Source: Phlebiopsis flavidoalba
Lineage: Eukaryota; Basidiomycota; Agaricomycetes; Polyporales; Phanerochaetaceae
NCBI GenBank assembly: GCA_035772785.1
Contig: JAOCPU010000052.1
Coordinates: 62,001-126,000, forward strand
Direction of reading: 5' to 3'
DNA length: 64,000 bases
The translations under genes and the position numbers were made by a program. A model generated the notes under the pieces. That model was not told the DNA's origin. It made no database searches and saw nothing but the letters and a program-made list of their open reading frames with translations. Shown piece by piece: positions 4,561-63,577 of this stretch; the stretch's first letter is position 1, and the number at the start of each line of letters is the position of its first letter.

Positions 4561-5067
4561 ATCGGCCCAAGCAGCACTTCATCTTCTGCCTCCGGCGGAG
4601 CGTAGGGGCATTATTTTGGTGTACATCTATATATAATGGACGGACATGGTATTTTAAGAGAAGCGACTCACGCATCAACCCTCAATGGATCATCTCAAAG
4701 TGCTGGCAGACTTGGTCTCTGTCACCACTGGTTCAAGATTATTTAATAGAGCGTCCTATTCTTGGCAAAGTTGGAGAGTGATGATGGCCGCTCTGGTCTT
4801 GACCGACCGTGATATGTATTCCTGACACGGCAGGTAGTGAGGGACCAGCAACGGGCTTCTGTAGAAAAAAAAAAATACGTGGAAAAGTGTAGTAGTACGG
4901 CAGGAAAGGTGGTTGAGGCGAGCACGGCCCAAGGTAATGGAAGCCCGTGAATCAAGACCGTTGCTTGAAAGTTTTAGAAGAAGGCGTTGTAACTTCTGCT
5001 TCGTGATATATTGAGAGCATGCAAACTCCAGTGAGGGTAGATAAGTAGAGCAATTTGCGGTACCCGA
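4561..5067. other. Convergent 3' intergenic region
   Basis: About 500 bp lie between the 3' ends of TAM41 (plus) and mitochondrial S12 (minus). It contains an A-tract at 4865-4875 and no recognisable coding block. It probably holds both 3' UTRs. Confidence 0.4.
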
Positions 5068-5741
5068 CTATTGCTTCTTAGGCTTCTTGGCTGGAGAGTG
5101 ACCTATGTAAGTTATGTTCACTGAAGCAGAAAAACGTTGAGACCTGCCTCCGTATTTACTGCGCGCCTGCATACGACCCACAAAACCGTTGAGATCCAAT
5201 TTACCACGGACGCATTTATACCTGGCAATGATAGATATTAAACTCGCGGGAGACAAATCAGAACATGAATACTCACCTGACAACCGGGCAAATCCTGTGC
5301 ACGACCACCTCTCTTACCAAGACCACACTATGTTCCTGCAGGTTGTGGACCCTCGCCAGGAATATACGCTTGTACGACCTCTCCGTTTGAAAGCTTGACT
5401 CGTGCAACCTTACGCTTAGCAGAGTTGGGCTTCTTTGGTTTGGCTATGAATACGTTGCTGACAACTCCCTTAACTTGCGGGCGGTTGTGTAGAAGCGGGG
5501 AGGTAGGCACTTTTGCTCTTCTCTTGTGTTTTCTCCGAGTGGACTGGTTGAGCGTTGGCGAGCGAGGGCGGTGATGCATGGAAAGAGCGGAGCAGAGGGA
5601 CGAGAAACGGGAAACGAGTGAGGCGGAGACACATAGAGTGTACCGGGCCCGCGCAACAGTGCTGGCGCAGTCAGCGACGTCGTCGTTGGCCCCCATGGTC
5701 GCTGTATGCTGGCAAAGGCGCGAAAAGCGCGACGAGAACAT
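5068..5741 (-). CDS. MRPS12: Mitochondrial ribosomal protein S12 (uS12m)
   Basis: Decoding-centre protein of the mitochondrial small ribosomal subunit. The signature runs PTLNQ (about 5550-5562), [20 protein letters not shown] (5382-5441), [27 protein letters not shown], then after an intron (about 5221-5268) [15 protein letters not shown], and a last exon KKPKKQ with TAG at 5068. Two slips are unambiguous: one extra C between GEG and HNLQ near 5347, and an extra GA in VRGG near 5307. An extra T follows near 5288. The final intron appears to begin GC rather than GT (see findings). Start options in frame are 5804, 5741 and 5579; the upstream Arg/Ser-rich stretch suits a presequence, so 5741 is a choice, not proof. 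The protein is usually essential for mitochondrial translation. Confidence 0.9.
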
Positions 5742-23196: not shown

Positions 23197-24767
23197 TTTA
23201 CCACCGTTCCTCACAGCAAGTGGTTGTGCATTATCCCCCATCCCTGCCCCTCATCTCGCGGTCACTGCATCCGTCCCATTCTGCTTTGACACTTTAAACT
23301 TTTTGGGACTCGCATTTTCTTACATCACTTTCGTAGTCGTTCTCGCTCTACTTCACAGCCTCACGACCCTAGCCTTTTTAGCTCTTCTCGCTACAGACCC
23401 GGACAACAACAAACAACACGCACGCCCACGCGGTCGTCTATCGCCTCACATCTCGCCCCCACGGCCGCTGCACTCGTTCGCCCCCACCCACGGTCAGGCA
23501 GCCAGCACCCACCCCCGGCCGGCTTCACACGCAACGCACCCCATACATATTCACGCACACACGCACACACGCTGTCCCTCCCTACAGCCCCCGCCCGAAG
23601 ACGTCCCGCGCACGGCACGCACGCACGCGCCCATCGTCCCGTCCGCACCCCGCCCGGCGGCACCACAGCACCCGCACCCGCACCCACCGCTCGCCGCCCG
23701 CATGTGGCGCCGCCTGCCCACCCTGCCCTGCTCTGCCCGACTGCCGCCAGCCCATACCCAACTCGCCCGCCCCGCGCGCGGGTGCCCATACCCCCTTCTT
23801 CCGGCCGGCCTATTTATTCCCTCCTCTCTATCTCTCGCGCCCCGACCCCGGGGCCCACTCGCACCCCGTTACATCGTTTTAGCCCCTTTTTACGCCTCTT
23901 TTCTTTCGATTGAGCAATTTTTTTTTTTCCTTTTTTTCAGATTTTTTTTTTTTTTGCGTCTTACTCCCGCTTGTGTTGGTCGCAGCTACTGTCGCGTTTT
24001 TGCCTGTCTGCCCGGGCGCCCCTAATTTGTGTGTTTCGATATGGAAAAAGACAAAATCGTGCGTGCGGATAATCCGGAGGGTGAGTGGTGGTAGAAGATG
24101 CGGGATGCATTGTGGGTGCGTGGTGGACACTCCTTGCCATTTCCTTTTTTGTTTTATTTCTTTCTTGTTCCGTTTTTTCGTTTCGACTCTGAGCGCTGTC
24201 GTCGTCGTCGTTCCCGTGTCTTGCAAGAGGTGGTTGTTTCACGCAGGTACCTAGGTGGCTTACATATGTTCGCTTTTTAATTGCTCCTTTCCAGACATAT
24301 ATACCACAATTGTATTTTTGTTCAAGCAACTCTTTTTCTCGGTGCTCGATTTAGCCTATGTTGAAGCGTCGAGAATGAAGCCGCGGCGAGCGAAGCACAC
24401 CGCCTTGGTCTCCTAATAGAAGGACTCATGCAAGCATCGCTTGCACATCGCTTGCCCCAAGCCGGCACGGAGCACGCATAGAGCACGCGCCGAAAGCCGT
24501 ACACAGACGCATACACCCACTGTTCTTGCCTGTGGTAGATATACACTGTCGGGCACACTGCATTCCGTTTGTGAAATGTTTTTAAACGAGAGATCTAATG
24601 GACAACACGGATGTGCAAAGCAAGGGTGTGGGTGTGTGGGGTATAGCAATACTAGGTGCGCACCATGCGCGAAAGCAATCGGCGAGATATAATATAGTGG
24701 CAGCGGGCGCGGTGTCTGGGTCTGTCCTTGTGCGGAGGGTGCGGTGTAGTCGAGGCGGCACGACGCG
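23197..24767. other. Intergenic, low-complexity
   Basis: About 1.6 kb. 23390-23800 is C-rich with CA/CG-type short repeats (cacgcacacacgcacacacg near 23550). T-runs lie at 23919-23955. Open frames here are Pro/Arg/His-rich and look compositional. It is probably the 3' flank of the membrane-protein gene and, from about 24300, the 3' flank of the carrier gene. Confidence 0.4.
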
Positions 24768-26206
24768 CTATGGGTGCGCCGTCCGGCCGTTGAGGTATCG
24801 CATGAGCATCTCGTACCTGTCCACGGCCCATGTTAGCAATGTATATATGCGGTGTGGGGGGGAAATGGAAACGCACGTCAGCATCGTCACGGCGCTGTTC
24901 GGGACCGTGCGGACGAGGTTGACGGACAGGCCGCGGTAGAGCGCGTTCCAGCCCTCGTTGCGCACGATGATCTGGCCCATGCGCACGACGCCGGGCAACG
25001 CGCGCGCGCCGTGTAGCCGTGCCCCCCGCCGCGGCGTCCGCGCCGCCACCCGCCCTTGAGCCGGCGTGGGTACGTCTGCAGGCGCGTGCGCAGCACCTCG
25101 TGCGGGTTACGTCGCGATCGACGGAGAACACGGTCATCTTCGCCGCGGACGAGCAGCCGAGGATCTCGTGTCTGCGAGAGCCGATTCGGAGGCGCGCCGT
25201 TGCCTGGCGGGTGTCAGCACGCCTCCGGCGAAGCAAGCAGGGTGTACGCACTGGCCCAGCTCTTGAGGAACTCGTGCACAGGGGGAATTGGACGGCGACG
25301 TGCGTGATGCCGAGCAGGCTCGGGAGCAGGCCGCGGAAGAAGGCGCGCCAGCCTTCTGTCCGGTAAAAAAAAAAAAAAAAGATCGTGATCGCTGCGTCTA
25401 GGGTGTGCTTGTGCTCCGTAGTGCTGCTCGTCGCGAGACTGGGTCTTTTCATAAGAGGCGCAGTTAGAAGCGGCACAAGAAGAGCTTCGCGGGCGATATG
25501 AGGGCACATACCATGAACCTAGTTTTTGATTACCTCACAGAGGGTTGGTACATAGTGTACTGGTCGCACCGGCCGCCATCGCAGAGAGAACAAGTTGTTG
25601 CATAAAGTCCATGGGTGATCCTGGCCCTGTTCAGATGGCTGGTAGCCCTTTACCTGCGCTGCTGGGTAGACATGGCGGGCGACGGGGACCTCCTCTATTC
25701 GCTGCCTCCCAAAGTGATTCTTGATGCCGTCATAGACCGCAAAGTAGATGGCCCATGTATCGGGAGGTAGCCCAGTATGGTCGCGGACCTGAGCTCCGCG
25801 AATAGGGGTACATGTCCCCGCACGCCGTCGTACTTAGAGGATGTTCTTGACCGTGTCTAGGGAGCGGGGCACAGCGCGCAGAGGGGGAGACGCACATTGA
25901 GCACAAATCGCCTGCGCGGTCGCAGGGGAACCCCTCTCCACCGACTATTGCCCAGGTAGCCGTGGTGGCCGCTCTTGACCCTGCTGGGCTTGCAGCTTTG
26001 TCTTGATCACGTCGAGCGGGACATGTGGCGACGCTGGCGACCAGGCCACCTCTCCGCGTCCCAGCTGCAGGCCCTGGGCGCGCACGCAGGTCGGACGAGC
26101 GTAGCGAGTGGGGGCGCATACGATAAGTGTCTGCCCGGTGGGGCGCGGCGGGCGGGGATGGCGGCGCACGATACGCACCAATCATGCTGTTTGTGCTCGA
26201 CGACAT
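24768..26206 (-). CDS. Mitochondrial carrier, NAD+/pyrimidine-nucleotide type (SLC25, Ndt1/Rim2-like)
   Basis: Inner-membrane six-helix transporter. ATG 26206 gives MSSSTNSMI, then an intron. All three carrier repeats are visible: GLVASVATCPLDVIKTKLQAQ-type motif at about 25985-26040; STLCTNPL-VIKTRFM at 25510-25565; and HEVLRTRLQTYPRRL at about 25060-25100. NPLWVIKTRFM in repeat 2 is typical of the NAD+/folate/pyrimidine branch. Other blocks: TILGYLP (about 25762-25785), QDHPWTLCNNLF (about 25590-25625), TEGWRAFFRGLLPSLLGITH (25295-25355), EGWNALYRGLSVNLVRTVPN (24895-24960) and YEMLMRYLNGRTAHP with TAG at 24768. One intron acceptor is preceded by a T-tract (A16 at 25366-25381 on the plus strand). 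Several slips interrupt repeats 1 and 2. Exact substrate is inference. Confidence 0.85.
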
Positions 26207-41772: not shown

Positions 41773-42548
41773 TCACGGAGCCAGCCTGTCAATCTTCCAC
41801 TGTGGTGCGTCGTCCGACGAGCCTTGCCTGCCCGCAGATACCGCACACGATCATGGAGACGCGATGGTTTCCCAGACCAGAATTCAATCTCGCTGGGTAA
41901 ACACAGAAGAGCGGAATGAGTGACATGAGAACGGAGCAGCCAACACGGGCAGCACTCACTCAGGGACCACGCGCCAGCCGCCCCAGAAGTCGGGGAGGGG
42001 TATGTCCGCTTCCTTCGTGTCGTCGCCGACGGCGAAGCGCTCGCCTTGACCTGCTCGAGGCGCTCGCGGACCCTCGCCTTCGCCGACGACCTTGCTCTGC
42101 TCGCTCGCCCACGCGCCGAGACGGCTCCCCACAGGGCCTGCTCCGGAAGTACTCCTCGCTCTCGGCGGCGCTGACCCGCTCGACGCGGCCCACGACGCGC
42201 ACCTGCCGCCGCGAGACCTCGCGCCAGTAGAACGCGAGCGCGGCGTGTGTGGGTTTGCGGCCAGCTCTGCGGACTTGCGCGAGGTGTAGTTGGTGTAGAA
42301 GACGAAGCCCCGGGCGTCGAGCTGCTTGAAGAGCACGAAGCGCGACGATGGGCACGCCCGCGGCCGTCGCCGTCGAGAGCGACATTGCCTCTGGCTCGTT
42401 TACTACGTCTTGCACCTCGGTGAGCCAGGTGCGGAACTGTGCAAAGGGATCTGGAGAGACGACCGCTGGCGAGAGCGACTCGGGCGGGTCGTACTGGTGG
42501 TGACTGACAAATCTTGATTTTGTCGGGTGAGGGGATGATGACGTCCAT
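41773..42548 (-). CDS. PDX3: Pyridoxamine 5'-phosphate oxidase
   Basis: FMN enzyme that oxidises pyridoxamine or pyridoxine phosphate to pyridoxal phosphate (vitamin B6 salvage). ATG 42548 gives MDVIIPSPDKIKI, then YDPPESLSPAVVSPDPFAQF (42435-42497), LTEVQDV, NEPEAMSLSTATAAGVP (42350-42400), FVLFKQLDARGFVFYTNYTS (42285-42345), SRKSAELAANP, LAFYWREV (42215-42240), RQVRVVGRVERVSAAESEEY (42155-42215), FRSRP, GAWASEQSKVVGEGE, VRERLEQVKA and DIPLPDFWGGWRVVP (41957-42001). After an intron with an in-frame break comes EIEFWSGKPSRLHDRVRYLR (41829-41892) and WKIDRLAP with TGA at 41773. The C-terminal WxGxxxRxHDR-like and R-L-x-P ends are hallmark PNPO features. About four slips. Confidence 0.9.
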
Positions 42549-45838: not shown

Positions 45839-47262
45839 TCACGAAGGTTGGTCCATGTGTGGTAACAGATCAGACGCAGCCGGTCTGTCTAGCGAATATG
45901 TCCTCCAGCATCTTTTCATCAGCTCCAAAAATGCGTCCTCAACATTTTCGGTCGATTGAGGTGAATCCATTCACCAGTTCAGCGGGGGGTTCGGGGGGGG
46001 GGGTCTAGAAGGCATTTGCAGAAGATACAACCTCTTGGCAGGGGAGTATACCCGCAAAAGTGAACCTGTCAGAAAACAGCAAGTTAAAACTCCTCTTGCA
46101 GTCCAGTGGCCTTGTAATATGGGCATCATTTTGCTTGACAACTCACCTGTAACATGACCATACCGTTACCCACAGAGTATACGTCGCTTTGGGGTGTGTG
46201 TGTGATCGTAGCGGTCACAAATCCCATTCACCTAAGGTTTACGAGGATTTCTGGTGCCATATATGCTCTTGCTCCTTCACGTTTGATGCTGGTCGTAGCT
46301 GGACTAGAATCCACAAAGTTTTGCTATGCCCAAAGTCGGTCAGCACAGGATTTAGGCCTGTTTCGTGGCTGACGTCCACCAAGATATTTTTCTACGCGTA
46401 GAAGTCAATAATTTTAGTAAGGAACCCTAGAGTTAGGGCGGAACGCCGCACTATCAACTCACACATCACTCAACCCCGTGAGAAGGTCTCCGTGTACAAT
46501 ATCTTCGCAGTGAATGAACGCCAAGCCCCTTGACCAGGGGGGGCAGTGCCGGGGGCCCTAAGAGCTCGTGGTAATGATTGGTCAATCAGACATCGTCTTC
46601 GCGTGCTGAATAAGCGAGCCCACCATCCCCATACTGTTGTGTCAAAGTTATAGTCCTTTTATTTTTCTTGTAAATAATCAACCATGTTGTCATCCAGCTT
46701 TGGCAGCACAACCCGCAGTGACGAGTTATTTTGTTTTATTTCTGTCTCCCGAACTCGACCTTATATTTTGCCATGAAGGAGGACTCGGATACCGAATTCG
46801 CCTCCGGCATGCACCCCAATGGCCATACATATGTTCTCGGCTCTAGATAATGCTGTAAGGCTACCTCGCGCAGGACGGCACGCCTAGGTTGAAGGTCATT
46901 AGCATATTGAATGCACCACGTTGGAGCAGACCATTGGCTTACGTTTTTCGCCATTGTTTCCGGTCCTTCCATACGCCGATGACCCTCGGCCGTCAGTGAG
47001 TGGAATGAAGACCTTGACAGCAACGTATTCGGGTTTACCACGCCGTCCACTGGGAGGTAACGTGGCCCCCAGATAAACGATTTACTTTTGGCGTATCCTC
47101 CTGTCCCCAATCATTTCCGGTATACCATCACTGCGGGTCCACGATCTTGATACCCTGCGTGTGTAGCTCTTGGGGCACACACATCAGTGTGCTCAATGAG
47201 TCCTGACTACCAGCCTGCGAAGCGTCTTGCGTAGTGTCGTCCATCGCTTCCTCGTTCAGCAT
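45839..47262 (-). CDS. Protein kinase A of the cluster (type 1, canonical motifs)
   Basis: TKL-like Ser/Thr kinase by motifs. ATG 47262 opens a Ser/Asp/Gln-rich leader (MLNEEAMDDTTQDASQ; then VPQELHTQGIKIVDPQ). Kinase motifs in order: glycine loop GTGGYAK (47090-47110), EYVAVKVFIPLTDG (about 47003-47045; beta-3 Lys present), LREVALQHYLE (46842-46875; alpha-C Glu), KGLAFIHCEDIVHGDL (46486-46535; catalytic loop with HGD), NILVDVS, VLTDFGHSK (46319-46346; DFG intact), ARAYMAPEILV (46238-46272), SDVYSVG (about 46163-46190), ELMKRCWRTYSLDRPAASDL (45860-45930; subdomain XI Arg). Stop TGA 45839. All key residues are present, so catalysis is plausible. It pairs with the type-2 gene directly upstream in transcription order. 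Introns of 50-60 bp and several slips. Partner and substrate unknown. Confidence 0.75.
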
Positions 47263-47668
47263 GATATGCTTCCTACTCCAGCGTCAGGATCTTCCGACGA
47301 GATTATATTGTCAATGTCGTGAGTGATGCGTGCGGTCCACACGCATGACAATTATGGCCCCTAAACGCAAGCACCCAATCTCCAAGCCGCAGCACAAATC
47401 GTACTTCAGAAGCACGAGCAGCGATCAGGTGAGACCGCTTTTTACTCTTTCCCACGGCCCGGGTGACTGTTTTAAGAACGCTTCAAGCCATGGAACATGG
47501 AATTCCGGTCTGTACACTGTAGTCCTGGTTGATTCGGTTCCGAGTCACAGAAGTCTTCGAACTTTGCAAACCTACATCTGCCACCCCGGTGGTATCAGAT
47601 TGAGTGGAACATACGCTTTTTTCTCTTGTTTTACTTTCTTCCTGCTTTTGGTAGCCCACATACCACGC

Positions 47669-48960
47669 TAGACATATGTAGGCGCATAGAATCTCTCTTC
47701 CGCTGTGGGTCTGTCCTGGCCGGGCTCGTACAAAGGCCCAGCAGGCGCAGTCGTTTATGAGAAGCTTCTCAACAACCATCATCCGTCTATATGGCCACAA
47801 TGTGGGCGCTCAAGGCAGATGGCCGTCTAATAGTTATGTTGCGTTGCTCGGCGTGTAGAACAGGAGAAGAAAAGGTCAATCCGCGAAACGTAGGAAAGAT
47901 GACGACCCGCTTACGGTAAACGGCATGTACATTGAGGTCTGTCATTGGTCATTATCTGTTTGTACAAATCATATTTGAGAAGTTGCGCTCGCATGTCAAA
48001 ACACACCAGTGACACCAAAAGTACTATGGTACACACACCTGCAAGATGCACATCCCAAAGGAGAATATATCGCTTGCCAGAGTTGGGTACGGTATGTTTT
48101 CGCTATCAGGGTCATTTCCCTGTTCCATCAGTGAAGTCAAGATCTCTGGAGCCGTCCATCGGGAAAGGCCGTGTCAGAGCTTGACTCAACATCCCAAACC
48201 TGCCTCCAATAGCATATCCCCGGGACATCCACAAAAATGGCTGAAGAAGAGTCGCCGAGCTGGGCGCTGCCCTGGTCAGTTACCAAAATGTTATCCTAAG
48301 CTAGGTTATAACGATTGGGCAGTATTAAGGAGCTGGATGGCTTACGCAGCGTACTTTGGCCGTGAGCAATTTTGTTTCCTGTGTAAATATGACTAAACGC
48401 AGAAGCAATGTCACAGAGCTAGAAAAAGGAAATTTAAGCGCTGTAAGCCCGCCGGCAAAGGGTAGGTTGAGAAAGGTCTCATACAAGCGGTATATTTTCG
48501 GGTAACGATGGTTGCTACTACGTTTCTAAAGCTACCACATTATGTCTCTGTTCTTGGCGAGAGGGTAAACAACTTGAAGGCATGCATTTGAAATCAGATG
48601 AGGATCCCCTAGGGTCAACACATGGCGAATTCCGGAATATAACTCCTTTTAATTTGAATATGTTCGGATGATCGAGGTATCCCATCATACCTACAAGCCT
48701 GGCAAGTCTGGGCTGGATACAAACGAAGTATCAAGACGACTGAGTGGAAGAGAAGCCGTGAATCCTGATAAGTTACATACCTTGTAAGATGACTCCGAGC
48801 CGAATAATACCGCGACCCCATGGTTCGGTCATGAGGATCCCCGTCGTAAGGGCGATATGACTTCACACCGCTACCGCTTTGTCCGTTAAGCCGACCTTCG
48901 TAAACACCCCCCATAAGTTCCCCATCCCAGGAGAGCGGGCTGATCGTCAGCGGTGTGTCT
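47669..48960 (-). CDS. Kinase-like protein B of the cluster (type 2, degenerate motifs)
   Basis: Kinase fold readable as: GVYEGRLNGQ (48880-48910, glycine-loop end), VAVKSYRPYD after removing two bases near 48868, HPNIFKLKGVIF (48636-48672), ASAFSHIYTGNKIAHGQ (48352-48405), NILVTDQGSAQLGD (48251-48292), RWTAPEILTSLMEQGNDPDS (48115-48172), ASDIFSFGMCILQ (48050-48088) and a subdomain XI remnant NDCACWAF with REIL (about 47700-47765). Two catalytic features are off: the loop reads HGQ where HGD or HRD is expected, and DFG is DQG. With indels common here the first needs resequencing, but the second sits in a clean frame. Likely pseudokinase or weak kinase (inference). Leader exons may extend to about 50.3 kb; the start is unknown. 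Its closest relative by motif is gene D. Confidence 0.65.
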
Positions 48961-51006
48961 GAGTATGCTTAAAATGTGTCCCGTCTATGCAAACATTTTC
49001 CTCGGCACCAGCCCACTCCGCTGATGAGTCTAACCATCATCCGATGAGTGCTTTTTGATGCAAAGCCCTCCACTGGACTATATTCCTCTCGGCAAAGGAC
49101 TTCTTCATCTCGTCTCTTGAGAATCTGAAAGCGACCTCTGAGAAGAATGAATGAGATGTTATGACCTAAGCAGGCGTACCCGATGGCAAGCGTCGAGATG
49201 GTCTTGGTGAAACATCATGTTCATAACTTCCTAACATCGCGAGGGTCCTTCACGAAGCACTGGTGGTTTTGTGTGCATTTCATCCCAAAGTTTCTCGCGA
49301 CCACGTTCTGCGGCCGCGTAGGGTCCTGACATGATCAGGAAAACGGACATAAATCCTTGAGACTTGAACGGTAATCCAGGATCAGGTTCCTCAATTTTGC
49401 TGTTTCTTTCAAGCTGAGTTCAAACACTAGTGTCGTAACATGTGGCTCGAGTCGAGCTTACCGAGTGTCAACTTTGACAATCTAATGTTGATATGCGTCT
49501 TGTGGCTCGGCTGTCAGCGTTTCAGACTTTGCAGCTCCGAATATGCCTAGTTCTTGGGCCTTGCTTGTTGGCCGGTTGCGCACCCGCGAAGCGGCACTGG
49601 ACCAAACTTCCGCAAGTAAATTGAGGCTCATCGTATACTCTAACGCCGCTCAGGTGACACGTGTAAATCGAGCACGGGACGGGCTAAGCCCAAAGAGGAC
49701 ACAGCGCCTCGTCAGGATTTAGCGATGAAAGCAACTCCGAAAAACCGGGCAGCCGGTCACGTACGTCTGATGAAAGGCACAGTGGGCAACTTCACTGGAT
49801 CGGTATCACACAGCAAAACGCACACCGTCAACCTCAACCGTCCACACCCACAGGCTGGTTGCATGGCAAAATGCACCGAGTCGCGCTGTCGCACCACAGC
49901 CTCGTGACTTGGTTGATCCTATGTAATTCCATAGCCACTTCCACCGTAGGCTGCTTAGAGGCTCCCCCTAGGCCGAACAACCTTAGAGCAGACTCGGCGG
50001 ACGATGTCTTAGTGCTGTGGAAATGTTGCGAATTGTGCTTATGGTCAGATTATGAAAAAAGCTCCACATGCAGACATACATACATGATTAGAAGTAATGA
50101 GCTGTCATCAGTGCCGCAAAATCCACGACAACATTCCATCTGCGCTCAAAGAGCAAAATTGTTCGCTTGGGCTTCCCAGGGCAACGACTCGCTCTCTCCG
50201 ATCCCGGGTGGGCATCGTTTTCATGCGACGCCGGTAAAATCGCAGGGGGACGGGGCCATTGGGCGTTACTATACACATGAGTTGTATACGGAGCTGTAAT
50301 GGAAGTCATGTGTCTACTAGAACGGTTAGGACTTTGTCATTGGACAGGTCATAGTGGATGTTTCGAGCGGCGCGACAACTTGGCTGATTGTGTAGGTCTC
50401 GACCTCGGACTAACTACGCCCGCTGTTGATCATGTAAGAATTCAAGTTTACCCAAGTAAGCGGAGATTGTGAAAACATGTGCTGGTAAGGAGTACGTGCG
50501 CGGCGGTCAGGCCTAAGCTTCAGTCAGTCAGGCGCGGTTATGACTTTCATCACAGTTCATCACTACAGGGATGCTTTGTCAGCGGTCGCACCGTGCGACG
50601 CCACCACAGCCCCCATCCGTCGTCTCATTACCTGGCGGGTTGCGCGACCGCACCGCCTCAAGAGCACGCGAACGGACGCACCTCGTTCAGTGCCTGGTCG
50701 CCACGTTCAAACAACGTCGCCTCGCAACATGCGCACACGTGTTAGCTCTCCGAGCAGACAGTCATCAACCGCAGAAAACGCTGTCTCATAGCACAAGTGG
50801 CTATGGATACTATAGCCATATAGAGAATAATCGCAGTAAATCACACCAAGAAGTACTACCTAGAGGCACACGAACGAAGTACGTGATGTGACATACTGAT
50901 TCAGACAGTACGCGATCGTTTGGCTCATACAAGTCATAATAAATGTTGGCAGGAGCTTTTTTTTCAAGACTAATCTGATCCCAGGTCCATCGCTAGAGTC
51001 CTTGCT
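48961..51006. other. Unassigned spacer between kinase modules, possible 5' exons of gene B
   Basis: About 2 kb. Minus-strand pieces that look like protein: SGPYAAAERGREKLWDEMHT (49270-49330) and FAERNIVQWRALHQKALIG (49065-49120), perhaps N-terminal exons of kinase B. On the plus strand 49725-50891 holds frames without a family. 50900-51006 is the 3' flank of kinase C. No mobile-element signature was seen. Confidence 0.3.
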
Positions 51007-52701
51007 TCATGGCATTATCATAAAGTGCAGTGATTGGAGTAGCACCAGAACAGACGCAGTAGGCCTGCCCGGATGGATGATTTGTCCTCCAACATTGCGT
51101 CATCAACTCCCATAACGCGTCCTCGATATTCTCAGGCCTCTCGGGATTCCAATCCCCAGCATATCGCTTGCTCGTGACAACGGATTGGGGCGACGCTTAT
51201 TACTTCTTTCTGAAAGTATCCCGTCCAGGTAGACCTATTAAGAGGTATAGTGGGGTTTATTTGGCGACTTTCTAGAATCAAATCATAACTTGAGACTTGC
51301 CAGTAACATGAATATACTACCCGCAGAATACACAATCGCTCTCAGGGGCGTGCGCCTGATTATTGCGGCCTCCGTCCCGCTAGTCAACAATGAATTTCCA
51401 GCGCCATGTTGATGCGGTATCTTCTGCGCGTCGTATGCAATGTCGTGATCGGAGTCGAGTGGAGACGGGTGTGGGGCGTCCGAAAATTGGACTATGCCCA
51501 AATCGGTTTATCAAGGTCTTGATGCTCCGCCTCCGAAATTAGTGTCTTACATACAGAATATTCCCCTAGAGGTAAAGTTTAGCTTTCCGTACATTCAATT
51601 AAGTGCTCATGGGAATCGTCTCTCACCCCATGAAGGTCTCCGTGAAAAAACTCCTTTCGCCATGGAGAAAGTGTTGCAGTCCTTTCGACACCCCTACCCC
51701 TGAAGCTTCCCGACAAGATATGTTAGACATGATTTAACAGCACAAAATGAGTGTCAAAAATACCACGGAGTACTTGTCGCTTAAAGTTACACTCTTGCTA
51801 CCCCTTTTTTGACATTTTTGCAAATAGTTGGCTATGTTATCTTTCATCCGTGGCAGCACAAGCTGCAGAGTTTGGTATCGCCTCATCTTCCTCCACATCA
51901 TCTTCACTCGTGTGACCGAGTTCCCCGAGGCTTCCGAGGCTGGAATAATCTTCGGCTTTATAATACCCAGTGGCCGACAGATGTTTTTCGTGCTCCAAGT
52001 AGCGCTGCATTGCCACCACCTCACGACGACAGGCCTACAGTGTTGAATTCGACGTTACGGAATGTACGGTATCAAGTCTCCAATGTACTTACACTCATCC
52101 ATTGCTCGCAGTCATCAGCCCATATCTTTGTCAAGCGGTTGTGGCGGATTGAACTCCTTGACTACAACGTTTTGGCGTATATTGTGTTGGTCCGAGTCCG
52201 GGATAAATGTGCCGAATACACAACAGCATATGCTCCTTGTGGCAATGACCTTTGTTTACCCCATTATTCTAGTCGAAACCGAACGATGCCCTGTGCATAT
52301 ATACCCGGGGGGCATGACGTGGTTCGTTCTATGAAATCTGACAACGAGTCGCGAAGGGTTTTAACGTGAGTAGTCCCCATTGGTCATCATCCAGTGCAAT
52401 TTGTGCTCTATCGAGGGTGAGGAAGCTTGTGATAAAGATTATTAATAAGTGCAAAATTGCATACAATATTCGAGATACAGACGTACCCAATCTCCAAGCC
52501 GCACAAACCGCTCTGCACGGCCGCCGGTATAGCGCTGCACTTACCTGTTTCTACCGTTCCAGGTTTTTTGAACAACTTGTAAAGTCGCTGTACGTGTTTC
52601 CGGTCTGAAGCTACACCACCAACATTTTGGCCAAAGAGTTCCTCTTCTTCCTCTGAAGGTCTATCTAGCGATGGGGCTTGTGCAATGATCATGTGAGTCA
52701 T
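51007..52701 (-). CDS. Protein kinase C of the cluster (type 1)
   Basis: Paralogue of gene A. The leader includes MIIAQAPSLDRPSEEEEELF (52630-52690). Kinase motifs: NVVVKEFNPPQPLDKD (52108-52180; beta-3 Lys), REVVAMQRYLEHKNICRPLG (51970-52025; alpha-C Glu), LVLPRMKDNIANYLQKCQKR (51805-51870; hinge and beyond), GLQHFLHGE then FFHGDLHG (51627-51690; catalytic loop), TD-FGHS at 51489-51510 (reads TDFGHS if one T is restored, TDLG as given), VYSAGSIFMLLAS (51300-51340) and NIEDALWELMTQCWRTNHPS (51065-51130), followed by GRPTASV. Stop TGA 51007. The beta-strand and subdomain XI wording parallels gene A closely, and the intron after HGDLHG is in the same place. Start 52701 is the first ATG of the open leader and abuts the end of gene D. 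Confidence 0.7.
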
Positions 52702-52739
52702 CGTCTGCTAGAATCTTTGTGAGAATTTGAATCTAGGTG

Positions 52740-54476
52740 CACATACCACTGCTTATGCGGTTGTGGGTGGTCATGCACGTCGTTTGCTGTAGGCCTGTCA
52801 TTGGATTTGAAAGACCAGCAGTCAAGCAAGAGCTTCCACAGCGCATCATTTCATGCCACAGTGGTGAGAAAGGTCAGGGCGTTTGGGCAGAAACGGCCAT
52901 CCATTATCAACCGCGCAACTTGGTCTCGACAAGGAAGGTGGTGGAAAAGGTGAGCTGCGTGTCAAGATCTATCATGAAAAGTAAACTGAGCACGTCCGGC
53001 GGAAAATGCCAACGTATACGCACCTACAACGTGCACATACCAAACGCAAAGATATCACTCGCAAACGTTCTCCTAACCCCAGAGGTATCAAGTATATTGG
53101 GCTCGTTTAAATAGCATTGCGCCAATAGTTTCTGGAGCCGACCACTGTTCTCGATTATCCAATAGAGAGTAACCTAAGTCTAACCGGTGTATCTGCAAAA
53201 ACATGCTAAAGAGAATCCTGAGAGTTGGGCCCTGTAGTCATCTGTTAATGAGAATACAACCCTGGCTCGAAGTGTAAGCCAACGGCACAGAAGATGGGCC
53301 CAGTAACAGACTTACGCCATGCAGATCACCATGAATGATGCCTTTTCTGTGCACGTATGACAACGCAGCCGAGCGATCTCATAAATCTAGCACAACCTTG
53401 AACGTTATTATACTATGCGAAATAATTAGGAAAAGGCAACGTACAAATTCGTAGGTTTTGGATACCGGTGGATTGATTTGCTTCAAATATCCGATTTAAA
53501 GTCCCGTTCCGCGTAAGAGGGGTATACTGAAAAGGGGTTTTGGCGACTATATGGACATTGAAAATGATCCCTTGTATCCTGCAAATGTTGGCATGGTCGA
53601 GATAGCCCGTAACCCCCATCTGATGAGCCAGATAAAACTTGACCCAATGAGGTATATTTCAACTGAGAGCAAGGGGAGACTATGGTCAAATACATGCCTT
53701 GATATTACGCGCGACCTTCCCGTTACGTATGTTCTCAGATAGATTGCGAGAGCTATAGGTGCTATATCTGACAGCTACAGCCTGCCCGTGAAGCACGCCT
53801 TCATGAGCAACTCCGTGGGCTCCGCGCGCCGAAAGAACGGGGAAGCCCCGAGCGTTTTGCGGAGGGGTTTCAGGCTGCGAAATTCGAGTGCATCGCCATT
53901 GGTACCTTCCCTCTGTGCTTGGCAAGCCACGCTATTAAACGATGAGTGGTCTCGCGTAGAGTTTCCCATCGATCTAGATCAGCGACAGCTTCCTTGCTTT
54001 GTTGGCTCGTCATGATCTAAAAGCAATTCGCAAATGTTATCACTACAGTAACGACATGCTACATACCCAATGACAGAAATCGAGAAGACCCTGCACCTCA
54101 TCTTCTTCAGGAAGCTCGTCCACCGTTCCTAATATCTTTGATTCTAGTAGACTAATGGTGGTTTGCGGATGCTTTTTTGAACTTCTCAATCCACGCTTCG
54201 CACTCGGGGCTTTGTTGCATAGGCGGCGGGTGTGGATCATCTTGAAGGCTCGGGCGTGTCCCTTCCGATTCGCTCGATTCCTCCTCAAGGTCCAATTTCT
54301 AGCTGAGATATTATGGCATGTGACTGAGACTCATGATGCTGCCCCGCGCCTGGTGGAGATTGGTCTTGGGCATCAGAGGTTACTTTCGCGGGGATTAGGT
54401 GCGCGGATCCCGAGAAAACCACCCTGGGACTCGGACGCATGCGAACATGAAGGTTGGGATAATGAGAAAGTGACAA
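52740..54476 (-). CDS. Kinase-like protein D of the cluster (type 2, degenerate DFG)
   Basis: Paralogue of gene B. The N-terminal helical segment includes SPECEAWIEKFKK (about 54170-54215) and SKILGTVDELPEEDEVQGLL (54080-54145). Kinase motifs: GVAHEGVLHGQAVAVRYSTY (53755-53815; Arg where the beta-3 Lys is expected), HANICRIQGIIFNV (53555-53597), AALSYVHRKGIIHGDLHG (53325-53390; HGD present), then an intron and SLTDDYRAQLSG (53212-53250; DDY in place of DFG), QWSAPETIGAMLF (53112-53152), ASDIFAFGMCTL (53023-53066) and LWKLLLDCWSFKSNDRPTAN (52790-52855). It ends around 52740, within about 40 bp of gene C. Motif wording (TDxxxAQL, SDIFxFGMC, HGQxVAV) ties it to B rather than to A or C. Probably catalytically weak or inactive (inference). 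Confidence 0.65.
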
Positions 54477-56200
54477 GGGATCTTAGTGAGTCGATTCGAG
54501 AATGGTAGCCGGAGAGACATGGGGGGGACTGTTGGACAGGCAAGGTCGACGCGAGCCAGACAACGTGGATCGCATGAGGCGTCCTTCACGCCATAAACCT
54601 ATAATAAACCACAATGAGTCGTGGAAAAAATCTGTTGCCCACTAAAGCTCGTGACCGATTAAGGAAAACGATTGATATAGGGTCTTCTCATTCGCTTGAC
54701 GCCACCAAGCCGACCAACTCGTAAGTAGAGTGGGCTCGTAGACTTGCCTGGCTCAATCTGCTCCGTTATATATGTTAGCAAATTTTCGTAGCACTTCCAG
54801 TGGACGAGAACTACGCACCACAGTACAACCACAGTAGACCACAGTCAAAATTGTTCGAGGGTGCAAATCATGCATCATCAGCGCCGACCCAATCATGCAA
54901 GATTTTTCATCCGGCGCTAGAAGAGTAAATGGTCCGGTCTTCGACTTCCCAGTGCGATGAGGCGCGATGACGCTCTCCAATCCGTCCGTCCGCGGGATTC
55001 TGGCGTATGTGATGGATAGACAACACTGGTTTTAAACGCGATCCGGCACAAATATCGCAAAGTGGATACGTTTCGCAGACGAGGTGTCCATCGCGAGCGG
55101 CGCGACGCTTGGCTGCAAGACGATTCGTTGAGGCAATTCGACCCCGGGGGATTTCTCATTACCGAGGACCTGGCTAATTTTCTTTTTTTTTTTTTTTTTG
55201 TGGGTCAGCCACGTCCTTGCACCTCGATTTATCTCACTCACATTGGGTTACATTGTCGGGCGCATCAGAGCAACCTGAACGATTCACCCGCCCGGTGGGT
55301 ACGCGAGCTCGCGACCACCCAGACGCGCGCGGGTCACTCGTGGCGACGGATCGTGGCGTGAGCCCCCGCGCCCCTGTGCGTTGCCTATCGCAACACCACC
55401 CATATCCCGGGCAGCCCGCCCATTGCACACACACTGCGCGCGCCCGCCAATCTATCACGCTGCGGTTGAGCAACCTCGAACATGCTCGCCGTCTAACGGG
55501 CCGCACTAACCAGACCCCCCCCTCGCGAAGCCAAGAACCAAAAAAAAGGACCCTGATTGCGGGCATTGGGGGTGTGGCACGTGCATCCGCTCATCAGCCC
55601 ACCATAAGCGGAGAGCGTGTTCTATACGTGCAACGAACATACGCTGGCGTCTTCTGGGGCGGCTCCGATTCAGTCACACGACCGCGAGGTGCCTGATCAT
55701 TGGGCAGCAGCGGGGGCATCCGTATGTCAGGAGGCCCTAATCATCCTGGCTGCGTCCCCACGGATTGGGCGGGCGTTCAGGCACCCGGTGCTCGGTATTT
55801 TGCGAGCTGGACGATAAATTTTTTTTCGGGCGGCGTGTGGGACATCGATGCATGCGAGCGCAGAGCAATCATTGCTGCAGAACATGGCGCGTAGCCCCTT
55901 GTTGTCGTATGATATGAGTTCGTTCTCATGGTGAACGTCGAATGTATGTTGCCTCAGAGGACGACCGAAGCAATGCCTGCCACCGTGTGATGTGGCGACG
56001 CGGGGCGAGCGTGTGAGGACCCCGACTGGGTCGCCGGCGAGCTGCGTTCGTCATGAGAAAATGCGCGTTTTCTTGAGCGGATTGCCTTAACGAGCTTAGA
56101 CCGCCGGGCACACAAACATTCCCCAAGCACACTTGCCCGAGATAGGCAATTCGGTGATTGGGGCGGCCTATAGGCGATACGGTCCACCAGTATTTCTCGC
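54477..56200. other. Intergenic between kinase block and kelch gene
   Basis: About 1.7 kb. 54600-54980 is AT-balanced without motifs. A T-run lies at 55181-55199. 55200-55700 is C-rich. A plus-strand piece at 55714-55850 (PGARYFASWTINFFSGGVWD) reads like protein and might be the first exon of the kelch gene. The rest shows nothing. Confidence 0.35.
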
Positions 56201-59056
56201 TTGACTTGGCTTCAGGTTACCACTGCAAGCACCCACTCCTCTTGTCTACTCTTCCAACCCGCAAGCCGCGTCCCACGTCCCCTCCACGAACCGCCGTCGA
56301 CCACCCCGACGCCCTGGTGGCCATGTAGCCCATCGCCGACCTCACCGCCTTCTGCCGCAGGACCTCCGGGGATGTGCCGCCCAAAGCTCGTCGTGAGTCC
56401 CGACACGCTCATTAGCACCCTGCGCGTCGCCCGCTCACAGTCTTGCTGTGTCTCCCCCAGGGTGCATCGACCACCGTCGTGGGCAAACAGGATGTACCTC
56501 TACGTGAGTGCCGCCCCCTCCGAGTGCGTGGTAATGCTGGCTGAGAGCAGCAAGGGCGGACGCGCCTCAGGTCGACAAGACGAACGCAAGATGGTACTCG
56601 GACAATCTACATGTTCGACCTCGAGACGCTGCGGTGGGAGAGAATCGAGCAGAATCGGCAGACACGACGATGTACACCGCAGGCTCGGTACTTCCACAGT
56701 GCTGATACATGTGAGTGCGCCACCCGTGCTAGATGCGAACTCTACTTTTGCCCGTCGAACCTAGTTCGAGTGCCCCCGCCCTTGCACCGTGCGGGACTCG
56801 CACTCGACCCGTTTGTCAGTAGCCGTACGGGGACTTGCCAGATGCTGACACGAAAACCCCCACAACAACCCAGGGAAACAACTATCTCATCATCTTTGGC
56901 GGAATGGGCCATACCAGCTGCAATACTTAGACCCCAGAAGCAATATGCTGCGTCCTGAACGACGTCCATGGTCTTGTTCGATTTTGACGGCACAATAGAT
57001 GGCTGTCTGCCTCCCATTGGAATACCCGCCAACATACCCCCGGCACCCAGGCGCGTTACGCCCATCTTTCTTCGATAAACGGCGAACAGACTATTTGTCA
57101 TCGGCTTGGCCAAGTACCTGAACACAACGTCTGGCTCGTACGACGTGCATGTGTGACGATCTGCAACGGCAAGATTGGGTCTCCCACAAGCCGAGACTAG
57201 CCCCCGTCCACTGTGGGACATATCACCGCAGTGTTGCGGTATCGCCCTCGCAGCAGCGCTGTCCGCCTCCCACAGGAAGCAAGAAACGACGCAACAGTGC
57301 GCACCACCTGGGCCACCACCGGGGCACGCTTCAACGCGCACGCCGACGCGACTGGTTCACGGCGCCGGACGCAACGGAGCCGAGACACGGATGGTGCACC
57401 TGCCGTACACCTCTAGACGTGATCCGTCAGACAATCGTTTTTTCCGTGCGACATATAAGTCTTGTTTCAGGCAAACTACAGACGTGCGTCCCCCCAGGCG
57501 CCGCGCGCACCAATTACGGCATGCTGACTTTGCTGGCGTGATAAAGTTTACAGACTCCATCGCGAACTGGATAGTAGGTTCTCCCCTGACTCCGGGCTCG
57601 GACTTTACCGTCTCCGACCGGTCGAAACGCGGATGACGGTCCAGTTCTCTTCCCCCCGGGCCAATACTCGGTTGCGCCCTCCGGGCGCCATCCTCGGCAC
57701 CGCACTTCATCGTCGGCCGGTACCTATCTCATCTCCAGAGCTTCCAGTCGTTCTCGATATGGGGGCTCCTCGACCTCGTCAGCATGACCCATGGTCGCGC
57801 ATCGGACACCCGGCAAGCACCCTCTCCAACACCACGGCGGCTCCTGGTTTCCGCAGACTGCCCTCTGGGCCGACGCGAACGGGATGTAAGGTACCGATCG
57901 TCTTTTGGCAACCGCCACGGCAGCATCGTCGAGGACTACAGAACCGCCGTGCCTGCTCAGCTGGGACCATGTGATTGTCATCGACCTCGAGCCTTTGGCA
58001 TCTACCAGCCCCCGCCGCTCGCCATCGACATTCCCCCAAGGCAGGAGCTCGGCCTCGCTGCGCTCGAGGAGGGGTGTCCTCTGCGCGGACTATATTTGAG
58101 ATCATCTGCGACGACGGCCGCAAGATCAAGTGCTCCCGCCAAGCTCCTCGAGGACCGCTGGCCGTGGTTCAAGCGCCAGCGCCAGCTCTACTTGCAGGCT
58201 GCTGCGCGTTGCGATTGTCGAGACGGTCCCGGCGGCGTCGGCGCAGACGCCTCTGCCAGAATGTGCACGCCGCGTCACGGAACGACAAGGACGAGGAACG
58301 GCCTGACCCCCGCCTTACTTTTACTTATTTTATTTCCGGGGGGGACCGCGAAGCGTTCCTTCTCTCAGAGTCGTATCCCCATCACGCTCGCGTTTCTGGC
58401 AGTATTTGTACTCTATATGGGGGCTTTGCTCACCCCTCTGCAGCACGCCGCCGGCGGTCCTCAGCCAGCTGTTGCTTCTCTCGAGTACGTATGACCTGCC
58501 CCACCTGCAGTCGCTCGTCAAGCATCACGCGATTGCACCGAGCACTGACCATTTGCCACGTCCGTGGGCATCTACGGCGTGTCGACGCTCTGCACTGCAG
58601 GAGCCTGCAGATCAGGTGAGTGTCATCACTCTGACACCAGGGGGGGGGATACACCGGCCGTGCCCAGACTCACGCCCCGCAGAGCACTGCGTGTAGTGAT
58701 GGTGACGGCAGCCCTGCCGATCAATCTCTCTTGCATATGTTTTGATGACGTAGAATTAGGCGTACAGCCCGAAGCGACCGGGCGGGCATTGCAGAGGTTA
58801 AACGGAAGGGGAAGCAGCAGGCCGAGCGGACAAGGACGGCTTCTGGTCGGAGCCGGCCGCCACCGAGGACTCATTCAACGGCGGCGGCGCTGGGCCGGGG
58901 GGTGGAAACCCGGACAGGGGTCTGCGGCGACGGCGCGGCCCCGCGGGCTGTCGGACGCGTCTTCGTACATGCAGCAGGGCGCGTCCGCCGACGCGGCGCG
59001 ATGGGATCCGGCAGGGAGTACAGCAACGGCTCTGGCTCTGGTAGGCAGCCGAGTGT
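56201..59056 (+). CDS. Kelch-repeat protein with C-terminal BTB-like region
   Basis: Propeller protein. Kelch-type blocks: GASTTVVGKQ (about 56461-56490), FDLETLRWERIEQNR (56613-56657), NYLIIFGGMGHTS (56881-56918), LNDVHVL (about 56956-56980), DDLQRQDWVSH (57152-57186), GTYLSHLQSFSIWGLLDLVS (57715-57785), FGNRHGSIVEDY (57905-57940), DHVIVIDLE (57970-57995). Then AFGIYQPPPLAIDIP (57994-58040), LGLAALEEG, FEIICDDGRKI (58098-58130), KLLEDRWPWFKRQRQLYLQA (58138-58197), ITLAFL-YLYSMGALLTPLQ (58382-58440), PAVLSQLLLLSSTYDLPHLQ (58451-58510), LVKH and CRSLQIR. The part from FEIICDDG to SLQIR has the BTB/POZ order (dense core, LYT-like YLY helix, SSTYDLPHL helix). A basic, Gly-rich tail follows. Such proteins often act as Cul3 adaptors or polarity factors; here that is inference. 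Start and stop approximate; many slips. Confidence 0.8.
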
Positions 59057-61562: not shown

Positions 61563-63577
61563 TTAGAGCATGGCTTCGACAATGTCAACGAGGACGAGCT
61601 GGCGACGCCATCGAGGCGCGGGGGCGCACGGTCCGGCTGGGTATTGGGCAGCTCCTTGGGCGAGCCGGGGGCGGCCTCGTGAGAAGGACCGCTCATTGAA
61701 CCCTCCGCTAGGAGACGGCGTAGGGTAGCACGAAAACCCCCGCTCATTTCGGGGGGTGGGGCGACGACGGGTGGGAGGTCGTTGTCGCGAGCCCTGGCTC
61801 GAAGATGGTACTTCACCTTCCTTCGTGCTGATAATGTGGTTGACTAGAAACTGCGTTTAGGATTGTACTTTGAATAACGCAAAATAAGATACTTACATTC
61901 CTTTGCGTGGGCTGACAGGTAGCAACGCGATCAGTAGCTGCGAGGAACATACGTGCAGGAACACTCACCTTGGTCCCTCTGTCTCGAGCATCTACAACCG
62001 TTTGAGCAGTTGGGCCGGTCCATGATGTGCCGCGGAAGGTGGCCCTTGTTCCGTTCTTGGACCACCATTCTTTCAAGCCCCCAGAGGAAAAAACTTCGGT
62101 AGCACACACGCGGCAGATGAGATTCGTGGTGCGGTCGGGATCCGGGTCGACGCCGGCGGAAACAACGTGGACGTCCATGAATAATTCGGACTCGATGAGG
62201 GGGTAGCGAATTGGCGAGGCGACCGCAGGATCATGTCAATAATCTGCCACGGCCGGTGAGCCCCATGCAGAGGGTTACCAGCTATTATTAGCGCATGCCT
62301 CACCTCACGGTAAATGAGCACCGGCTTCAGACCTTTCAATGTGAGATAGTCAAACATGATATCGACCTCGACGGTGTTTCCCGTCAAAAGATGTCGTAGA
62401 TCTCGCCGCACTGCAGCAGGTCGCCCAGGCTCGGTCAGTCCGTGGAGCTCCTGGCCGCCGAGGGTGCGCGCGCTCTGCAGCCAGCGTCCGACAATGCCGA
62501 TGCCGCAGAATGACACTTGGCAGAAATCACATTTTCGAGGTCTGAGGGGGGCGCGAAGGGCGAGTATGCTCTCACTGGCGGAGCGGTGAGTACCCGGCCG
62601 GTGGTATGCCGCGCAAAAGCTTACCAGTTGCCGCAGTAGGCGTGGCCAGGCGGAGCGCCGTCGTCGCTGGGCCACGCACCGTCGGGGTCGGCATCGGGGT
62701 CTCACGATCGGCTCAGGACACATCCACGCGTATTGGTTTCCCGGGATGCAGTGATGGGCATGGGTGTAGAACGTTGGGGTTGCTTTGAGGGATGTGGGGT
62801 TCGGGAGAGGCTTGTCTCGGTTTCTTGACGGGGAGCTGCGGGGGATGGTTAGCGCGAGTGGCCCGGCGGGGAAGGCTGTCTGCGTCACCCGAATATTTCC
62901 GCTAGTGTAGATTTCGTCTGCTTGTATCCGTTTTTTTTCGGTTTGGCTGTTCGTGCTTTGGACGGTGCGGCGCGTGCGAGTATGTCTGCCATTCTTTGAA
63001 GAGCCCGTGATGGCGTCACCGACATCGATATGCCTCGGCACGCGGGACAATTGGTTCCCCCGTTCTGCAAGAGTCGTATTAGCACTGTACGGGCCACAGT
63101 ATATCTTCAAAGGGTGCAGAAATTGAAGAATGGATGTGTGTATTGCGGCGGGGACCCTGAAGTACATCTGCGCCACAGCTCACCTTCACCCATAGTAATG
63201 ATACAGCTGGGAAGCAGATCTCAGCAAATCCTCAAAGAAGCACCAGACGCGATCCTCACCTTCCACAGAATTCTGAAATGTCTGGCCACGTTGTAGAGGC
63301 ACGGCGAGACAATGACCGGTCGGTTTTGGACGAGCGCGGGGAGAGCAGCAGCCGCACTGGAGCTCCTGCTCGAGCTCGTCGCGCGAGTGCCTCGCCGTCG
63401 ACGCGAGGCGGCCCACTGTCCTTGGGTCCTGCAGCGCATTATCCCGATGCGTCCTATCGGCCCCGCTCCTGCTGGGCCCTCCCGCCGACGTCGTCGAAGG
63501 CGGCGGAGGCACTGCGCTTGCAGCGTGCCGCAGGGCTCGCCCGTCGGCTCGCTGTGGATCAGGCTGGCGACGTCCAT
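61563..63577 (-). CDS. CHFR-like RING-type E3 ubiquitin ligase
   Basis: ATG 63577 gives MDVASLIHSEPTGEPCG. The RING domain is split by an intron (about 63064-63260): DELEQELQCGCCSALVQNRP (63317-63376), VIVSPCL, then GGTNCPACRG (63034-63064). After it: RALQRMADILARAAPSKART (62965-63025), KQADEIYTSGNIRV (about 62888-62930), a Pro-rich linker, CIPGNQYAWMCPEPI (62700-62745), a Cys-rich block KCDFCQVSFCGIGIVGR (62488-62540), GGQELHGL, NTVEVDIMFDYLTLKGLKPV (62319-62380), VDVHVVSAGVDPDPDRTTN (62122-62180), ICRVCATEVF, GLKEWW and a basic tail. Stop TAA 61563. The Cys-rich C-terminus after a RING matches fungal CHFR-type ligases; no FHA domain is seen, as in some fungal forms. Likely role: mitotic or stress checkpoint ubiquitination (inference). 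Several slips. Confidence 0.75.

What the first reader, a model, noticed from the sequence alone, without database searches (positions are those of the whole stretch)
45839..54476. Tandem duplication of a two-kinase module
Four kinase-like genes lie head to tail on the minus strand. By motif wording they alternate. A and C share REV-LQHYLE/REVVAMQRYLE, the HGDL catalytic loop, and an E(N)xEDAxxELMxxCWRT end. B and D share HGQxVAV, xxIxxxxGxIF, TDxxxAQL, SDIFxFGMC and a C-terminal CWxF. In transcription order they read D-C and B-A, so each module is type 2 followed by type 1. Non-coding bases around motifs also align (for example near 46150 with 51300, and near 48055 with 53035). This suggests duplication of a pair as one unit, then retention of both members.
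Basis: partly seen in the sequence, partly recalled or inferred. Interest (0 to 1): 0.8.

Follow-up and report, generated by a model that had tools for sequence, protein, structure and literature searches.

The report
Doubled kinase gene pair in mushroom
In a draft genome of a mushroom-type fungus, four diverged protein kinase genes sit in a row as what look like two copies of a two-gene unit whose first gene has lost catalytic residues and whose second has kept them; it is an ordinary tandem gene array with an unproven but testable twist.

Summary
Four kinase genes on the minus strand, D-C and B-A in transcription order, are real: frame-tolerant alignment scores 190-313 against 33-42 for 12 shuffles, and all four template-guided read-throughs pass Pfam's PK_Tyr_Ser-Thr cut-off. 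DNA similarity within the window pairs A with C and B with D (0 of 100 shuffles each). Trees group A+C (97-99% bootstrap, 61% with another template) and B+D (76-93%); A+B and C+D are rejected in three trees that share a template, not in the fourth. An old two-gene block duplication (35% and 29% identity) is the simplest reading. B is the weak point: its best DNA match is on contig C4, not D. Introns, spacer and flanks do not align beyond controls.

Decay is open: A-D have 3.8 frame breaks per 100 codons, the nearby single-copy PNPOx gene 3.0 (p 0.69), three housekeeping controls pooled 1.8 (p 0.012). The assembly is poorly polished.

Type-2 genes lost catalytic residues (6 of 9 scored); type-1 genes keep the five scored (10 of 10). 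A pseudokinase-kinase pair is possible, unproven. Known family; mild interest.

The parts
45839..47461 (-). gene A (type 1): N-terminal segment plus kinase domain; keeps VAVK lysine, alpha-C glutamate, HGD, DFG, APE
   Evidence: frame-tolerant alignment score 313 against 33-42 for 12 shuffles; read-through passes PF07714 (49.4 bits, cut-off 23.1); residues; the stop at the low end is read by eye
48036..49090 (-). gene B (type 2): kinase-like; alpha-C glutamate is Leu, DFG reads DSS, catalytic loop reads HGQ in the raw frame (frame break in the alignment); C-terminal end (about 47.8-47.7 kb, CWAF) seen by eye only
   Evidence: score 190; PF07714 35.8 bits; residues
51043..52516 (-). gene C (type 1): kinase domain; keeps lysine, alpha-C glutamate, HGD; DFG reads DLG; APE and the SDxxS aspartate are not canonical in the aligned row (raw frames read ALE and ESD)
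   Evidence: score 196; PF07714 47.3 bits; best DNA match is A (62.5 bits); residues
52545..52701 (-). possible first exon of gene C, ATG up to a GTAAGT donor; its ATG overlaps the TGA that ends D's open frame (ATGA)
   Evidence: reading of the sequence; not tested further
52698..54150 (-). gene D (type 2): kinase-like; alpha-C glutamate is Gln, DFG reads GFS, lysine lost (Ala in the aligned row, VAVR in the raw frame), HGD kept; low end is the stop read by eye, aligned part ends at 52776
   Evidence: score 289; PF07714 59.9 bits; residues
47470..47700 (.). spacer between B and A, compared with 52520-52775 (D-C): no similarity beyond shuffles
   Evidence: 104 of 300 shuffles score as high
41776..42451 (-). 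control, not part of the array: the only PNPOx (PF10590) match in the assembly, 3.4 kb from gene A, itself frame-broken 6 times in 201 codons

Best explanation
An ordinary tandem array of four members of the TKL-like (PF07714) kinases that are expanded in mushroom-forming fungi. An ancestral pair, type 2 upstream and type 1 downstream on the same strand, was duplicated as a block long ago, giving D-C and B-A. Shown: four kinase genes, the A-C relationship, order and strand. Moderately supported: the B-D relationship. Inferred: that it was one block event rather than several. Most likely working, inferred from residues: A and C are probably active Ser/Thr-type kinases (C less surely than A); B and D are catalytically impaired, so if expressed they act as regulatory or scaffolding partners, or they are drifting. 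Most of the frame breaks in A and B are probably assembly errors; for C and D some may be real.
For: Alignment scores 190-313 against 33-42 in 12 shuffles (8 of A, 4 of D); four of four read-throughs above the PF07714 cut-off. A-C and B-D DNA similarity, 0 of 100 shuffles each. A+C and B+D in the best tree of four builds; A+B and C+D rejected in three. In columns where neither gene carries the template residue, A-C agree at 40/42/36% and B-D at 45/41/33% of bases by codon position, cross pairs at 25-36%. Similar divergence of the pairs (2.13, 2.41). Own-genome paralogues stand in other same-strand groups: G and F on C4 at 630.7-634.7 kb, H and I on C4 at 719-726.6 kb, J and K on C93 at 0-5 kb. 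PNPOx, single in the assembly and 3.4 kb away, has 6 breaks in 201 codons; A-D together do not differ from it (p 0.69) nor from eight other paralogues (p 0.31).
Against: With template F, support falls to 61/49 (A+C) and 76/82 (B+D) and wrong groupings are not rejected. B's best DNA matches are I and F, not D. No intron or spacer homology remains. The rows are read-throughs guided by a template, which pulls them together. Tip branches of A-D are long (0.97-1.27). Against the assembly-error reading: pooled controls actin, PNPOx and an Rpb2-like gene have 13 breaks in 738 codons, fewer than A-D (p 0.012; C p 0.017, D p 0.011, A and B not significant), and C and D exceed all 24 simulated intact genes.
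Confidence: 0.6

Rival explanations
1. Independent tandem duplications or a mixed origin: A and C are a tandem pair, while B and D came separately from the F/H/I lineage, so the alternation is not the mark of one block.
For: B's best DNA match is I (48.3 bits), then F (42.5), then D (41.1); trees with B alone, or D alone, joined to F/H/I are not rejected (p 0.128, 0.132).
Against: B+D is in the best tree of all four builds; B+I alone is rejected (p 0.0165); order and strand repeat in both pairs.
Confidence: 0.25
2. A decaying array: all four, or at least some of them, are pseudogenes with real frame breaks.
For: A-D carry 3.2, 2.9, 4.2 and 4.5 breaks per 100 codons and 2, 1, 5 and 2 stops. Simulated intact genes gave 1.1-3.4 with 0.5% indels (8 runs) and 2.1-3.4 with 1.5% indels (8 runs), so C and D lie above every run. 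Pooled housekeeping controls 13 in 738 codons, p 0.012. Paralogues E and F have only 1.0 and 1.3. B and D lost catalytic residues. The array lies in a GC-poor stretch.
Against: The single PNPOx gene nearby has 3.0 per 100 codons (p 0.69). Eight other paralogues have 2.2-3.8 (pooled p 0.31) and G 17 in 378 codons. Identity by codon position is 47/56/38% for A-C and 49/50/36% for B-D, so third positions changed most; template guidance may exaggerate this.
Confidence: 0.3
3. A chance run of unrelated kinases whose motifs only look alternating.
For: Several of the motifs are shared with other paralogues.
Against: Pair-specific DNA similarity, 0 of 100 shuffles; pair-specific matches in template-free columns.
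Confidence: 0.03

Closest known systems
TKL kinases expanded in the mushroom-forming fungus Laccaria bicolor (PMC2838846, passages read)
   Same: PF07714-type kinase domain, many paralogues in one basidiomycete genome; the relative P0001 of Phlebiopsis gigantea is 76% identical to own-genome paralogue E over 222 columns
   Different: A-D are far more diverged (36-38% to E), and B and D lack catalytic residues
FslK, fungi-specific lineage of kinases related to tyrosine kinases (PMC3937382, parts 1 and 2 of 3 read)
   Same: expanded in Agaricomycetes, mostly without other domains; the paper already reports recent species-specific duplications and truncated members
   Different: membership not testable here: no FslK sequences or model at hand; the paper describes most members as having complete catalytic domains, B and D do not
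Pkinase_fungal / FunK1 (PF17667; the name FunK1 for this model is recalled)
   Same: a fungal kinase family
   Different: not met: A scores 13.2 bits against a cut-off of 24.1; B, C and D have no match at E 0.1
Pseudokinase-kinase partners such as JAK JH2-JH1 or STRAD-LKB1 (recalled, no call)
   Same: an inactive kinase domain beside or with an active one
   Different: here two neighbouring genes; no evidence of interaction or regulation

Membership tests
PF07714 protein kinase (TKL-like) | score above the curated Pfam cut-off of 23.1 bits | tested here: met
   read-throughs A 49.4, B 35.8, C 47.3, D 59.9 bits; they were guided by a kinase template and no read-through of shuffled DNA was scanned; none of ten single-frame pieces passes (best 14.5)
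Catalytically active kinase (A, C) | lysine of VAIK, alpha-C glutamate, HRD aspartate, DFG aspartate and glycine | tested here: met
   5 of 5 in A and 5 of 5 in C; outside these five, C's aligned row is non-canonical at APE (Ser) and at the SDxxS aspartate (Ile); activity itself not tested
Catalytically active kinase (B, D) | the same five residues | tested here: not met
   2 of 4 scored non-canonical in B (HGQ in the raw frame would be a further one), 4 of 5 in D; 4 of 54 in the 11 own-genome rows other than B, D, H and I (p 0.0002), 9 of 62 with H and I added (p 0.002); comparison made after seeing the residues
Pseudokinase | stable folded protein without phosphotransfer, with a regulatory role | not testable with these tools
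   only residue losses are seen; decay is not excluded
FslK | placement in the FslK clade | not testable with these tools
   paper read in part, no sequences held
FunK1 (PF17667) | score above 24.1 bits | tested here: not met
   A 13.2 bits, B, C, D no match at E 0.1
Tandem block duplication | A+C and B+D sister pairs of like age, same order and strand | tested here: inconclusive
   A+C starred in 3 of 4 trees; B+D in the best tree of 4 of 4 but starred in none
Tandem block duplication | homology of introns, spacer and flanks between the units | tested here: not met
   such homology is expected to be lost at this divergence (inference)

The most novel reading that the evidence does not exclude
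A duplicated two-gene cassette of a pseudokinase and its active kinase: type 2 (B, D) had lost the alpha-C glutamate and the DFG glycine before the duplication, each copy then lost further, different, catalytic residues, while both type-1 partners (A, C) kept the five core ones; the pair is tightly spaced, co-oriented and perhaps co-transcribed (D's stop and a possible start of C overlap as ATGA), and works as regulator plus enzyme.
Probability: 0.17. Interest if true: 0.6.

Novelty: new member of a known kind. Interest (0 to 1): 0.27.

Why it matters
Mushroom-forming fungi carry large, little-studied kinase expansions. If the pair reading holds, part of such an expansion would consist of linked inactive/active kinase pairs that duplicate together. 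As it stands, the practical lesson is that frame breaks in this assembly cannot by themselves be read as gene decay, since actin and the single PNPOx gene carry them too.

Tried and rejected
Single-frame Pfam scans of ten exon pieces: too fragmentary. Profile (PSSM) realignment: shorter alignments than the single template for A, B and C, scores 94-241 against 26-42 for 12 shuffles, used only as a check. Homologue searches: E read-through gave 298 proteins, of the 120 listed only P0001 close; F read-through gave 2; alignment A1 gave 288, 120 listed, P0001 first, with only the 7992 candidates sharing most words scored. No second species with both types was found, so the synteny test could not be done; candidates are chosen by shared words, so absence is weak evidence. 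Non-coding homology: rejected. Co-transcription: only the search listing of PMC4503453 was seen; left as a remark. Literature on pseudokinases in Agaricomycetes: one search returned 4 papers, one search listed 10 of 252, none of those listed on the subject by title; a Phlebiopsis kinase tandem search returned 0.

Rows dropped: of 14 candidate stretches, ten entered the trees; O, P, R (kinases of other kinds) and a badly cut slice of G were left out. G was added later from a proper stretch. P0122, P0123, P0124 and P0126, four of the proteins listed, were used and left out again.

Corrections: an earlier count gave 15, 10, 17 and 18 frame breaks for A-D, and the Fisher test uses 60 of 1438; the counted values are 13, 8, 16 and 17, together 54 of 1438. 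The catalytic-residue Fisher test used hand counts (7 of 10 against 4 of 52) and is replaced.
Full report
What the window is. The window is C52:62001-126000 of a 36.28 Mb, 129-contig assembly. The closest protein found to the family is P0001, a partial hypothetical protein of Phlebiopsis gigantea, so the organism is probably a relative of it; that is an inference from one protein.

The four genes. None of the 63 PF07714 matches listed for the genome lies on C52, and ten single-frame pieces score at most 14.5 bits. A family-specific query, the read-through of paralogue E on contig C4, finds all four on C52 at E 0.0013 to 0.067. A frame- and intron-tolerant aligner with a template made of part of E and P0001 scores A 313, B 190, C 196, D 289; 12 dinucleotide shuffles (8 of A, 4 of D) score 33-42. 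The read-throughs pass the PF07714 cut-off in four of four cases; because a kinase template guided them this is supportive rather than independent. A GT intron after the HGDxHG motif is aligned in all four and in E; one after FGMxLQ with a GT donor only in A and D (and E), with a non-GT donor in C, and B's alignment ends there.

Are they alternating? Without any template, best blastn scores are 62.5 bits for A-C and 41.1 for B-D, not reached in 100 shuffles each; A-B and B-C are at chance and A-D borderline; C-D is 21.1 bits. Among the family stretches compared, A and C are each other's best DNA match; D's best is B, but B's best are I and F on C4. Trees: 15 rows A+C 99/97, B+D 87/86; 20 rows 97/100 and 93/88; 16 rows 98/97 and 89/86; 11 rows aligned to template F instead, 61/49 and 76/82. 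A+B and C+D are rejected in the first three, which share a template and most rows, and not in the last. In columns where neither gene has the template residue, A-C bases agree at 40/42/36% and B-D at 45/41/33% by codon position, against 25-36% for the four cross pairs. The A-C link is firm, B-D likely.

One block or several events? Order and strand repeat, landmarks keep a nearly constant offset (five A/C at 5112-5184, three B/D at 4925-4985), the aligned parts within each unit are separated by roughly a quarter of a kilobase (B's end by eye), and the two pairs are about equally diverged (2.13 and 2.41). One block duplication is the simplest account. Against it: B or D alone with F/H/I is not rejected, and introns, spacer and flanks show no homology beyond controls. 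The four together as one clade are not rejected in one build (p 0.14) and rejected in another (p 0.037). The duplication is old: 35% (A-C, 307 columns) and 29% (B-D, 230 columns) identity, against 76% for E and its Phlebiopsis relative.

Are they broken? The alignment needs 13 frame changes in 400 codons for A, 8 in 277 for B, 16 in 379 for C and 17 in 382 for D. But the best actin match of the genome needs 11, six of them away from introns, in 372 codons at 316 identities to recalled yeast actin, and the only PNPOx gene in the assembly (one PF10590 match), 3.4 kb from gene A, needs 6 in 201 codons at 88 identities to recalled E. coli PdxH. An Rpb2-like gene needs 1 in 165 and E, against P0001, 3 in 226. 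A-D together do not differ from PNPOx (p 0.69) or from eight other paralogues (p 0.31), but they exceed actin, PNPOx and the Rpb2-like gene pooled (13 in 738, p 0.012; 18 in 738 with every actin call, p 0.13). Simulated intact genes gave 0.3-1.4 per 100 codons without errors, 1.1-3.4 with 0.5% indels and 2.1-3.4 with 1.5%, 8 runs each; A and B lie within the last two, C and D above all. Templates differ in closeness, which changes spurious calls. The fair statement is that the assembly is poorly polished, that A and B need no other explanation, and that decay of C and D is neither shown nor excluded. Codon-position identities for A-C (47/56/38%) and B-D (49/50/36%) suggest some constraint on the proteins after the split; template guidance may exaggerate this.

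Catalytic residues. Five positions were scored: lysine, alpha-C glutamate, HRD aspartate, DFG aspartate and glycine (positions recalled from general knowledge of kinases). A and C keep 5 of 5 each. B has 2 of 4 scored non-canonical, D 4 of 5; together 6 of 9. The other own-genome rows have 9 of 62, of which H and I on C4 account for 5 of 8; without those two rows 4 of 54 (p 0.002 and 0.0002). The comparison was made after seeing the residues, and substitution errors of the assembly may add to it. In D the aligner puts Ala at the lysine position; the raw frame reads VAVR. In B the raw frame reads HGQ at the catalytic loop, where the aligner sees a frame break. Both type-2 genes have lost the alpha-C glutamate and the DFG glycine; the other losses differ. 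Outside the five, C is not canonical at APE and at the SDxxS aspartate in its aligned row, so its activity is less sure than A's.

How it works, best guess. A encodes a probable active kinase, C perhaps; type 2 genes encode kinase-fold proteins that probably cannot transfer phosphate efficiently. If they are expressed, a regulatory or scaffold role beside the active neighbour is the natural hypothesis, by analogy with known pseudokinase-kinase pairs (recalled). Nothing here shows binding, co-expression or function.

Compared with what is known. A large number of TKL kinases in Laccaria bicolor is reported in PMC2838846 (passages). PMC3937382 (parts 1 and 2 of 3) reports an Agaricomycete-expanded kinase lineage with species-specific duplications. 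A tandem group in such a family is expected; other same-strand groups of this family exist in the genome on C4 and C93. Two literature searches listed no work on pseudokinases in these expansions by title (4 papers, 10 of 252 listed).

Verdict. The pseudokinase-kinase pairing is the one point worth following.

Noticed in passing
whole assembly; L035 and L032 (actin), window 41776-42451 (PNPOx): Housekeeping genes carry frame breaks (actin 11 calls in 372 codons, 6 away from introns; PNPOx 6 in 201; an Rpb2-like gene 1 in 165), so the assembly is poorly polished and any claim of a broken gene in it needs a control.
   Followed up: yes
window 46000-55000: The kinase array fills a GC-poor stretch (47-52% GC per kb) between GC-richer flanks (54-68%); other GC-poor stretches lie at 1-17 kb and in parts of 27-38 kb.
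   Followed up: no
window 52698-52701: D's stop and a possible start of C overlap as ATGA, which would fit a shared transcript; one case in a poorly polished assembly.
   Followed up: no
G000:C4:629378-639560 and 719100-726600: Five members of the same kinase family (E, F, G, H, I) plus a further PF07714 match; H and I also lack catalytic residues (2 of 5 and 3 of 3 scored).
   Followed up: partly
window 56545-56955 (+), 24655-25518 (-), 62076-63179 (-): Kelch-repeat, mitochondrial-carrier and cysteine-rich (zf-CRD) gene fragments, each below its Pfam cut-off.
   Followed up: partly
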